NCBI GenBank assembly: GCA_014138095.1
Contig: JACGXE010000008.1
Coordinates: 124,001-188,000, forward strand
Direction of reading: 5' to 3'
Length of the DNA: 64,000 nucleotides
Origin: Ochrobactrum sp. RH2CCR150
GTDB lineage: Bacteria > Pseudomonadota > Alphaproteobacteria > Rhizobiales > Rhizobiaceae
Shown: positions 42,652 through 45,629 of the stretch, piece after piece
Position numbering within the stretch: the first letter of the stretch is position 1
Layout of the letters: each line of letters opens with the position of its first letter
The notes under the pieces: generated by a model
What the model was told of the DNA's origin: nothing
Databases searched by the model: none
The model's input: only the letters and a program-made list of their open reading frames with translations
Position numbers and translations under genes: made by a program

Positions 42652-44607
42652 ATGTCGGAAAAGCTTTACCCCGTACTGCCGGAGGCAAAGAAGAACACGC
42701 TCATTGACAATGAGACCTACCTCGAATGGTACAAGGAAAGCGTGAGCGATCCGGATGGCTTCTGGGCCAAGCATGGTCGCCGCATCGACTGGTTCAAGCC
42801 TTTCACCAAGGTCAAGAACACCGATTTCAATGGCGACGTATCCATCAAGTGGTATGAGGACGGCGTCACCAACGTCTCCTACAACTGTATCGACCGCCAC
42901 CTGAAGAGCCGTGGCGACAAGGTCGCGATCATCTGGGAAGGCGACAACCCCTATATCGATAAGAAGATCACCTATCGCGAGCTTTATGAAAATGTTTGCC
43001 GCATGGCGAATGTTCTTAAGAAGCACGGCGTCAAGAAGGGCGACCGCGTCACGATCTATCTGCCGATGATCCCGGAAGCCGCCTATGCCATGCTCGCCTG
43101 CGCGCGCATTGGCGCGGTGCATTCAGTGGTTTTCGCTGGTTTCTCGCCGGAAGCGCTGGCCGGTCGTATCGTCGATTGTGAATCCACTTTCGTCATCACC
43201 GCCGATGAAGGCGTGCGTGGTGGCAAGCCGGTTCCGCTGAAGGAAAACACCGACACCGCCATCGATATTGCCGCCAAGCAATATGTCATGGTCAACAAGG
43301 TGCTGGTCGTGCGCCGCACCGGCGGCAAGGTCAGTTGGGGCCGTGGCCGCGACCTCTGGTATCATCAGGAAGTCGCCAGCGTCGAACCGCATTGCGAACC
43401 GGAACCGATGAATGCAGAAGATCCGCTGTTCATCCTCTACACATCCGGCTCCACCGGCAAGCCAAAGGGCGTGCTGCACACCACCGGCGGTTATCTGGTC
43501 TATGCCTCGATGACCCATCAATATGTCTTCGACTATCACGACGGCGACACCTATTGGTGCACGGCGGATGTGGGTTGGGTCACGGGCCATTCCTATATCG
43601 TCTATGGTCCGCTGGCCAATGGCGCCACAACACTGATGTTCGAAGGTGTACCGAATTTCCCCGATCAGGGCAGGTTCTGGGAGATCATCGACAAGCACCA
43701 CGTCAACATCTTCTATACCGCACCAACGGCCATCCGCGCATTGATGGGCGCTGGAGATGAATTCGTCACCCGTTCTTCCCGCTCATCGCTGCGCCTGCTC
43801 GGCTCAGTCGGCGAGCCGATCAATCCGGAAGCCTGGGAATGGTATTATCACGTGGTCGGCGATGAAAAGTCGCCCATCGTCGATACCTGGTGGCAGACGG
43901 AAACCGGCGGTATTCTGATCACGCCGCTGCCCGGCGCAACCGATCTCAAGCCCGGCTCCGCCACACGTCCGTTCTTCGGCGTCAAGCCGCAGCTCGTGGA
44001 TAATGAGGGCAACGTGGTCGATGGCGCGACCGACGGCAATCTGTGTATCACCGACAGCTGGCCGGGCCAGATGCGCACGCTTTATGGCGACCACAAGCGC
44101 TTCATCGAGGCTTACTTCTCCACCTATAAGGGCAAGTATTTCACCGGCGACGGCTGTCGCCGCGACGAAGACGGCTATTACTGGATTACCGGTCGCGTCG
44201 ATGACGTGCTGAATATTTCCGGCCACCGTCTTGGCACGGCGGAAATCGAATCGGCACTCGTCTCGCATCACTCGGTTTCGGAAGCAGCCGTTGTCGGCTA
44301 TCCGCACCCGATCAAGGGACAGGGCATCTATTGCTACGTCACCTTGATGACGGGCGCTGAGGCGCAGGACGCTGATGAGCTGCGCAAGGAGCTGACCCAG
44401 CATGTGCGCAAGGAAATCGGCCCTATCGCCACGCCGGACAAGATCCAGTTCGCGCCCGGCCTGCCGAAGACCCGCTCGGGCAAGATCATGCGCCGTATCC
44501 TGCGCAAGATCGCCGAGGATGATTTCGGCTCACTGGGCGACACGTCGACACTCGCCGATCCGGGCGTCGTGGACGATCTGATCGAAAAACGCCAGAACAA
44601 GAAATAA
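42652..44607 (+). CDS. acs: Acetyl-CoA synthetase
   Basis: The 651-residue AMP-forming acetate-CoA ligase, which activates acetate. The adenylation loop is LFILYTSGSTGKPKGVLHT, the acetate-pocket tryptophan region is DTWWQTETGG, and the regulated lysine lies in PKTRSGKIMRRILRK near the end. The length equals that of typical Acs. ATG 42652 has GGAGGA five bases upstream. The 3' end is unusual: a diverged second copy of the last 36 codons lies downstream at 45483-45593, beyond an AT-rich segment. Confidence 0.98.
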   Translation: MSEKLYPVLPEAKKNTLIDNETYLEWYKESVSDPDGFWAKHGRRIDWFKPFTKVKNTDFNGDVSIKWYEDGVTNVSYNCIDRHLKSRGDKVAIIWEGDNPYIDKKITYRELYENVCRMANVLKKHGVKKGDRVTIYLPMIPEAAYAMLACARIGAVHSVVFAGFSPEALAGRIVDCESTFVITADEGVRGGKPVPLKENTDTAIDIAAKQYVMVNKVLVVRRTGGKVSWGRGRDLWYHQEVASVEPHCEPEPMNAEDPLFILYTSGSTGKPKGVLHTTGGYLVYASMTHQYVFDYHDGDTYWCTADVGWVTGHSYIVYGPLANGATTLMFEGVPNFPDQGRFWEIIDKHHVNIFYTAPTAIRALMGAGDEFVTRSSRSSLRLLGSVGEPINPEAWEWYYHVVGDEKSPIVDTWWQTETGGILITPLPGATDLKPGSATRPFFGVKPQLVDNEGNVVDGATDGNLCITDSWPGQMRTLYGDHKRFIEAYFSTYKGKYFTGDGCRRDEDGYYWITGRVDDVLNISGHRLGTAEIESALVSHHSVSEAAVVGYPHPIKGQGIYCYVTLMTGAEAQDADELRKELTQHVRKEIGPIATPDKIQFAPGLPKTRSGKIMRRILRKIAEDDFGSLGDTSTLADPGVVDDLIEKRQNKK

Positions 44608-44626
44608 CGAAATATTCACGCTGCAT

Positions 44627-44658
44627 GATACGAGGCAAAATCAAAAATGCCTCGTATC
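44627..44658. terminator. Hairpin between acs and the convergent unknown gene
   Basis: GATACGAGGCA and TGCCTCGTATC form an 11-bp perfect stem around AAATCAAAAA. It lies 20 bases past the acs stop codon, and the stop codon of the opposite gene falls inside it. It could terminate transcripts from either side. There is no long T run. Confidence 0.7.
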
Positions 44659-45348
44659 ACATTTTAATCTTACATCGTAAAAATAATAATAATTCTTAAT
44701 AAGCTGAAGAAACCCCCATTTAAAATGATCGATACGCTTTATTATTGACTGAACGACGTCTTTATTCTTGCTCGTCGGAGCCTTTTCTATGAGAGAGCGT
44801 GCAGCCTCAACAGAAATTGCATTATGTATCGTATTATTTGCATCAGCATCTCTGCATTCTTTTACTTTATAAAGATAATGCTTCAAAGCAGTTTCATCTA
44901 CCAACACATCAAGAAGCCTATCAAGCTCCCTGGAAAGTCTAATATACCTATCAAAGGTGTATCCTTTTTCCATTATATCAACAATATGCCACCTCACTCT
45001 GTCAGCTTGCCCTCCAAAGTAATGAGAATGCATGTCAAGTTCAGCCGCCCCCTTTCGTTGCGTCTTGGGATTTTCAATATTTGCATGATGCCCCAAATCC
45101 ATAACTTTTAAATCTTGAATACGCCTGCCGAACGATGCAATTGCATCCCGATTATTTAGTGTGGGGTTATCCCGGTTGCCATTTTTACGAACATCCTCTA
45201 CCGCGCCCAGAACGACACCTACAATATCCCCGAAAACATGATCTCCTTGCGCAGGAGACAGTCGAGGGACTCCCTCATCAGTGGGTGGAGGTGGACAAAC
45301 ACCAACAGAATTGCTCCTTTCTCTTATGTTCATTGGGTTTATAGCCAT
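44641..45348 (-). CDS. Unrecognised AT-rich gene inserted next to acs
   Basis: A 235-residue protein with no family that I recognise. ATG 45346-45348 has GAGG six bases upstream. There is no signal peptide or membrane segment. The N-terminus has a Pro-rich stretch (VGVCPPPPTDEG); the centre and end are rich in charged residues and predicted helix (RLSRELDRLLDVLVDETALKHYL). Histidines and tyrosines are frequent (LGHHANIEN, DMHSHYFGG, KNYYYFYD). The DNA is much poorer in GC than its neighbours and codons such as ATA and AGA are common, a sign of horizontal transfer. A role in defence, toxicity or host interaction is conceivable but not shown. Confidence 0.75.
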   Translation of the reverse strand: MAINPMNIRERSNSVGVCPPPPTDEGVPRLSPAQGDHVFGDIVGVVLGAVEDVRKNGNRDNPTLNNRDAIASFGRRIQDLKVMDLGHHANIENPKTQRKGAAELDMHSHYFGGQADRVRWHIVDIMEKGYTFDRYIRLSRELDRLLDVLVDETALKHYLYKVKECRDADANNTIHNAISVEAARSLIEKAPTSKNKDVVQSIIKRIDHFKWGFLQLIKNYYYFYDVRLKCDTRHF

Positions 45349-45482
45349 TACATCCTCATTTAAAATAAAAAGTATTAAAATTCGAAATTTAATTCTATTA
45401 TAGAATATACTTATTGGCACTCCATAATATCTAGGGTACAAAAAATTTTATAATTGGAGAAATTCATCTTCACGATAGATAA

Positions 45483-45593
45483 CGGCGAACAATAAGAAAA
45501 ACGATCAAAGATAATTTCAGTTCGCTGGACAATACATCGACAGTTCCAGTAGTTATGAACGATCTGATCGCCAACCGTCAGAACAAGAAGTAA
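45483..45593 (+). pseudogene. Diverged 3' fragment of an acs gene
   Basis: Read in frame from 45483, these 36 codons align end to end with the last 38 codons of acs (44491-44607), with one gap of two codons; about 21 of 36 residues are identical by eye. The matching endings are DLIANRQNKK here and DLIEKRQNKK in acs, and both carry TSLG/TST-type landmarks (NFSSLDNTST against DFGSLGDTST). A stop codon (TAA at 45480) precedes it, and no ribosome-binding site or start exists, so it cannot be a gene by itself. Confidence 0.85.
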
Positions 45594-45629
45594 AGCAAGA
45601 AGGCCGGGAATTTCCCGGCCTTCTTGCTT
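45593..45629. terminator. Strong hairpin after the acs-tail fragment
   Basis: AAGCAAGAAGGCCGGGA and TCCCGGCCTTCTTGCTT form a perfect 17-bp stem around a three-base loop, beginning directly at the fragment's stop codon. This may be the original acs terminator. It could also serve the DUF1674 gene coming from the right, 160 bases away. Confidence 0.8.

What the first reader, a model, noticed from the sequence alone, without database searches (positions are those of the whole stretch)
44491..45629. A second, decayed acs gene tail lies beyond an AT-rich insert
Seen directly: the last 38 codons of acs (44491-44607) are matched by a diverged in-frame copy of 36 codons at 45483-45593, ending in the same DLI-x-x-RQNKK and a stop, and followed at once by a 17-bp hairpin. 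Between them lies about 875 bases of AT-rich DNA with one foreign-looking gene. Inference: an element was inserted at the 3' end of acs and restored the reading frame with its own tail, leaving the old tail and terminator behind; or the tail was duplicated at insertion. Elements that enter the ends of tRNA genes in this manner are well known; entry at a protein-coding gene with replacement of its last codons is much rarer. The upstream tail is GC-rich like acs, the fragment has drifted to AT-rich codons, consistent with decay.
Basis: partly seen in the sequence, partly recalled or inferred. Interest (0 to 1): 0.8.

Follow-up and report, generated by a model that had tools for sequence, protein, structure and literature searches.

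The report
Small gene insertion in acs tail
A one-kilobase piece of foreign DNA carrying a single gene of unknown function has slipped into the very end of a bacterial acetyl-CoA synthetase gene, swapping in its own last few codons and leaving the old ending and its stop signal stranded downstream.

Summary
In this Brucella/Ochrobactrum-group genome, acs (42649-44607) is followed by 875 AT-rich bases with one gene, then an acs-like tail and a GC-rich hairpin. In 33 of 33 genus genomes without the gene, a GC-rich hairpin follows acs directly. Comparison with the nearest relative, G006, puts both joints inside one 12-bp sequence, ACGATCTGATCG (44573-44584 and 45559-45570): acs matches G006 without mismatch over the 64 bases ending there, and the stranded ending matches without mismatch from there to the stop. 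So a 986-bp unit entered, supplied seven replacement codons with a stop and a new hairpin, and stranded the old ending. A relative of the gene (53-60% identical) sits after acs in Brucella oryzae, but its right border is not conserved. The unit carries no recognisable recombinase; what made the crossover is inferred. The architecture resembles prophage e14 in E. coli icd: a known kind, at a new site, unusually small.

The parts
42649..44607 (+). acs, acetyl-CoA synthetase (652 aa from the ATG at 42649), open to its stop
   Evidence: Pfam AMP-binding, AMP-binding_C, ACAS_N; 35 of 35 genus genomes have a match
44573..44584 (+). left copy of the 12-bp core ACGATCTGATCG (attL-like joint)
   Evidence: the 12-mer occurs twice in the window, here and at 45559
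44585..44607 (+). end of the present acs supplied by the insert (EKRQNKK* in place of native ANRQNKK*; the first base of the E codon is the last base of the core)
   Evidence: last 24 bases: 5 mismatches to G006, 1 mismatch to G019, G013, G014, G021, G002, G029, G026 and G008
44626..44659 (.). hairpin (12-bp stem) between the convergent acs and insert gene; now in the place of the native acs terminator
   Evidence: -18.7 kcal/mol, z -5.3, 0 of 200 shuffles as good; in G008 a hairpin of different sequence in the same place (-11.7, z -2.9, 2 of 200 shuffles as good)
44641..45348 (-). insert gene, 235 aa, unknown family, mostly helical in low-confidence models
   Evidence: only sub-threshold family matches, none in PADLOC; relative in G008; models
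44585..45570 (.). the inserted unit, 986 bp from the end of the left core to the end of the right core, GC 0.38
   Evidence: joints set by comparison with insert-free G006 and G027; length and GC
45483..45558 (+). acs-like pseudo-tail carried by the insert, diverged and AT-rich, in frame with the core
   Evidence: 0 of 2000 shuffles reach the observed DNA or protein score
45559..45570 (+). right copy of the 12-bp core (attR-like joint)
45571..45593 (+). stranded native end of acs (...ANRQNKK*), undamaged
   Evidence: last 24 bases: 0 mismatches to G006, 1 to G027
45593..45629 (.). stranded native acs terminator hairpin
   Evidence: near-identical hairpin directly after acs in G027; a GC-rich hairpin starting within 14 nt of the acs stop in 33 of 33 insert-free genus genomes

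Best explanation
A 986-bp unit carrying one gene, its own terminator and an acs-tail mimic entered the 3' end of acs as a circle by a single reciprocal crossover inside the 12-bp core ACGATCTGATCG, in the manner of a site-specific integrating element. Shown by sequence comparison: both joints fall in this core, the present acs ends in foreign codons, the native end and terminator lie intact 986 bp downstream, and a related gene sits after acs in another species. Inferred: that the incoming DNA was circular, that a recombinase made the crossover, and that this recombinase acted in trans or was lost with the rest of a larger island. The replacement tail keeps acs open and the new hairpin takes the place of its terminator, so insertion probably costs the host little. 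The gene product is unknown; it is best seen as cargo.
For: 33 of 33 insert-free genus genomes have the acs tail followed directly by a GC-rich hairpin. Against G006, the window acs has 0 mismatches over the 64 bases up to the core end, then 5 in what remains to the stop; the stranded tail has 0 in its last 24. Against G027 the stranded side goes on matching, with single differences, through the terminator. The acs-like pseudo-tail left of the right core is significant without the core, as expected if the incoming DNA carried an acs mimic. A gene 53-60% identical in protein lies directly after acs, in the same orientation, in Brucella oryzae NBRC 102588, which is not a near relative by acs (86.7% over 1700 nt; the four genomes at 93-96% lack the gene).
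Against: No recognisable recombinase on the insert. Of ten tyrosine-recombinase matches in the genome one is on the same contig, 51 kb off, and nine on other contigs. No second tail-only copy of acs at E 1e-5 in the other 34 genus genomes, and none confirmed in 394 family genomes. In B. oryzae the right border shows neither core, native tail nor native terminator, DNA similarity ends about 650 bp after the acs stop, and likeness of the border to acs or to the pseudo-tail is weak or absent, so it does not confirm the right joint. A 12-bp core is short for a tyrosine integrase (recalled; the Brucella phage BiPBO1 shares 46 bp, PMC4729917, passage seen).
Confidence: 0.6

Rival explanations
1. Linear transfer: a segment acs-gene-pseudo-tail from another species was copied in by homologous recombination on the left (within acs) and by a microhomology crossover at the 12-bp core on the right. 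No mobile element or recombinase was involved.
For: The new acs ending is one base from that of eight genus genomes. With a G021- or G013-like donor (last mismatch at -67) the left crossover could lie anywhere in about 43 bases up to the core end. No recombinase on the insert. The right border in B. oryzae is unrelated in DNA.
Against: Both crossovers would have to fall at or next to the same core by coincidence. It does not explain why the donor segment carried an acs-like pseudo-tail.
Confidence: 0.27
2. The unit is the shrunken remnant of a larger island or prophage that used the acs end as attachment site and has lost its integrase by internal deletion. (Overlaps with the best explanation.)
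For: Same joints as the best explanation; no recombinase in the 986 bp; many islands sit in protein-coding genes (PMC12884075, passage seen).
Against: No second acs tail at E 1e-5 in the other 34 genus genomes and none confirmed in the family sample. In G008 the gap from acs to the next gene is only 1129 bp.
Confidence: 0.3
3. Decay: the second tail is the old acs tail drifting after insertion.
For: It is AT-richer and diverged.
Against: The native part has 0 mismatches to G006 in its last 24 bases while the stretch next to it hardly aligns base for base; drift would not stop at the core.
Confidence: 0.02
4. Chance match or assembly artefact.
For: None found.
Against: 0 of 2000 shuffles; the insert lies inside a 223,573-bp contig of a 99.99% complete genome; a related gene lies after acs in a second assembly.
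Confidence: 0.01

Closest known systems
Prophage e14 in icd of E. coli K-12
   Same: The element enters a housekeeping gene before its end, supplies a replacement in-frame tail with a few base changes, and leaves the old tail as a fragment (icdC) on the far side (PMC11148124, passage seen).
   Different: e14 is a cryptic prophage; this unit is 986 bp with one gene and no recognisable recombinase. The icd duplicate is 165 bp with 12 changes; here only 12 bp is identical and the rest of the mimic is far diverged. The target is acs.
Genomic islands that reconstitute the gene they enter (TIGER/Islander class)
   Same: attB in a gene, gene restored by the element's own end (PMC12884075, passages seen).
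   Different: Such islands carry an integrase (recalled); none is recognisable here.
Integrase-less islets (general notion, recalled, no call)
   Same: Small, few genes, no own recombinase.
   Different: No known family matched; the gene is an orphan in the collections searched.

Membership tests
site-specific integrative element (integrase type) | identical core at both joints, present at the empty site in relatives | tested here: met
   ACGATCTGATCG at 44573 and 45559; unchanged in G006, one base different in G027
site-specific integrative element (integrase type) | target gene restored by the element | tested here: met
   acs open to a stop in the usual place; enzyme function not tested
site-specific integrative element (integrase type) | carries a recombinase | tested here: not met
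   the only gene has no Pfam or PHROG match above chance; nearest tyrosine-recombinase match 51 kb away on the same contig; serine recombinases not searched genome-wide
site-specific integrative element (integrase type) | recurs at the same site independently | tested here: inconclusive
   related gene after acs in B. oryzae, same orientation, but right joint not conserved
site-specific integrative element (integrase type) | excises as a circle | not testable with these tools
   needs raw reads or bench work
e14-type prophage | phage genes | tested here: not met
   no phage relative of the gene in PHROGs (best E 0.28), phage records or IMG/VR

The most novel reading that the evidence does not exclude
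A family of about 1-kb, single-gene, recombinase-less mobile units circulates among Brucella/Ochrobactrum species, each aimed at the 3' end of acs by an acs-mimicking attachment site and moved by a host or resident recombinase in trans.
Probability: 0.22. Interest if true: 0.6.

Novelty: new member of a known kind. Interest (0 to 1): 0.4.

Why it matters
It gives acs as a candidate attachment site for foreign DNA, and a clean case in which the empty site, the donor-like tail and the stranded tail can all be read. If the unit proves mobile, it would be an unusually small integrating element without its own recombinase. Otherwise it shows how easily a stranded gene end next to a mimic can be misread as decay.

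Tried and rejected
Phage records with an acs tail: 8 records; I looked at two. Pseudomonas phage Y6 (OQ572408.1) carries an acs tail at its very start, has no annotation, and the ORFs listed at both ends look by eye like bacterial chromosome; rejected as host DNA. The Acinetobacter record has acs among bacterial genes.

IMG/VR contigs with an acs tail: 10 loci. L066, L067, L069 and L070 have a Phage_integrase gene after acs, which looked like direct support. But in 4 of 4 a tRNA-Ser gene lies between acs and the integrase, the likelier site, and a search of the four records with the acs tail of L066 found no second tail (the query is 87-88% identical to two of them, so a short copy could be missed). 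Rejected. L065 has a DUF2971 gene after acs. For L068, L071 and L072 ORFs were only printed. L073 holds an acs-tail fragment inside a phage contig and was looked at in part; L074 was not looked at.

Second acs-tail matches in the family (E 1e-5): 41 genomes besides G000 had more than one. In 29 of 41 the extra match starts at query base 1 and stops at 33-47 (G095: 107), the motif shared with other acyl-CoA synthetases (recalled). In 11 it is full length; in G089 it lies at a contig edge. I fetched 13 stretches from 9 of these 12 genomes: 12 of 13 hold 228-652 residues of acs, so second genes or assembly overlaps; the G089 stretch begins inside the tail and is uninformative. G331, G172 and G305 were not fetched. 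One search scored only two candidates per genome, and the window's own second tail scored just 4.5e-6, so tails as diverged as this could have been missed.

The class search gave one weak hit besides G000, G706 at E 9.6e-4, not repeated with the single protein; taken as chance. A DNA search of the insert against plasmids gave two short matches, of about 62 and 31 bases. The right border in B. oryzae: protein likeness to the window pseudo-tail reached by 30 of 2000 shuffles, to acs by 366; DNA likeness to acs by 267, to the pseudo-tail by 559. Models of the gene product are poor (mean pLDDT 36 and 51); the viral fold search had 0 matches at E 0.001; the PDB fold search was not run, machine busy. 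Literature: listings showed no paper on integration at acs (one search listed 12 of 365; two searches found none); these are searches of an open-licence library only.

Full report
What is there. The window is G000:C8:124001-188000, from a genome of 5.5 Mb. Its genus holds 35 genomes here; one of them, G008, is Brucella oryzae NBRC 102588 by its record title, so this is the Brucella/Ochrobactrum group. acs runs to 44607 and is open. After it come 875 AT-rich bases with one gene on the minus strand (45348-44641, 235 aa), then an acs-like tail (45483-45593) and a hairpin with 18-nt arms.

The empty site. In the 33 genus genomes without the gene, a GC-rich hairpin starts within 14 nt of the acs stop, 33 of 33; the two exceptions are G000 and G008, the two genomes with the gene. 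The hairpin's sequence varies among genomes. The nearest relatives by acs, G006 and G027 (96% over 1700 nt), have the end of the next gene (DUF1674, named from memory) 204 and 201 bp after the acs stop, where the window has 1187 bp.

The joints. Compared base by base with G006, the window acs has no mismatch from -87 to -24 relative to the end of the stop, then five in the bases that remain to the stop, then no evident similarity. The second tail is unlike G006 up to the core and identical to it from there to the stop; against G027 the identity runs on, with single differences, through the terminator. The sequence shared by both joints is ACGATCTGATCG, found only at these two places in the window. 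The unit between the joints is 986 bp. The last 24 bases of the present acs are one mismatch from those of eight genus genomes (G019, G013, G014, G021, G002, G029, G026, G008), so the incoming DNA had probably been at another species' acs.

The pseudo-tail. Left of the right core, the sequence reads in frame as RKTIKDNFSSLDNTSTVPVVM against RKIAEDDFGSLGDTSTLADPGVV in acs. Without the core it is reached by 0 of 2000 shuffles at DNA and at protein level. Since the native bases next to it are undamaged, it cannot be the old tail in decay; it came in with the insert, as an attachment-site mimic would.

The gene. Family searches gave only sub-threshold matches (Pfam SpoOE-like E 0.013 at 16 bits with cut-off 23; PHROGs E 0.28; NCBIfam E 0.073 at 13 bits with cut-off 114; PDB sequences E 0.057) and none in PADLOC. 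Protein searches found nothing in phage or plasmid records or IMG/VR. It is in 2 of 35 genus genomes, 1 of 394 family genomes drawn from a larger group (G000), and in 385 class genomes only G000 plus one weak, unrepeated hit. Two pattern scans of the species-genome collection found no relative with single-sequence peptides and only B. oryzae with two conserved peptides; genomes lacking those exact peptides would be missed. In B. oryzae the match falls in three pieces, which may be sequencing error or real breakage (genome 69% complete). Per piece, dN and dS are 0.26 and 1.61, 0.39 and 0.70, 0.42 and 0.64, which suggests some protein-level constraint; acs between the same genomes has 0.037 and 0.66. 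Both copies share the layout acs, hairpin, convergent gene, and the two hairpins differ in sequence.

Limits. In B. oryzae DNA similarity (71% over 702 columns) runs from acs to about 650 bp after its stop, and neither core, native tail nor native terminator is seen on the right. Recurrence at the exact right joint is therefore not shown. No recombinase is recognisable on the unit; of ten tyrosine-recombinase matches in the genome one lies on the same contig, 51 kb off, the rest on other contigs. Some other genus genomes have unrelated DNA after the terminator, which shows a tolerant spacer and not a second case; the downstream side of G001 is rearranged and that of G030 ends at a contig edge.

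Judgement. The architecture is that of a site-specific insertion with tail replacement, as e14 in icd (PMC11148124, passage seen). The agent of the crossover is not identified. Linear transfer with a microhomology crossover and a shrunken island remain open; the latter overlaps with the best explanation, so the confidences are not exclusive.

Noticed in passing
window 45646-45785: An intergenic repeat lies after the stranded terminator; 28 of the 31 matches listed for the window stretch in the same genome are copies of parts of it, at 75-90% identity (40 of 54 candidates scored).
   Followed up: no
L084 (G021), L085 (G001), L086 (G005), L087 (G028): Different DNA lies after the acs terminator in these relatives: transposase-like ORFs in G021, a 225-aa gene in G005, rearranged DNA in G001 (names by eye).
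   Followed up: partly
L073 5001-5060: An acs-tail fragment in a GC-rich stretch of a phage-like contig, also reported in a second contig, L074.
   Followed up: partly
window 40119-40215: ARAGORN calls a tRNA-Phe within the large minus-strand ORF at 38117-40750, probably a false call.
   Followed up: no
window 44641-44659: The stop codon of the insert gene lies in the loop of the hairpin shared with acs, and its last codons form one arm; B. oryzae seems to have the same layout (read by eye).
   Followed up: no
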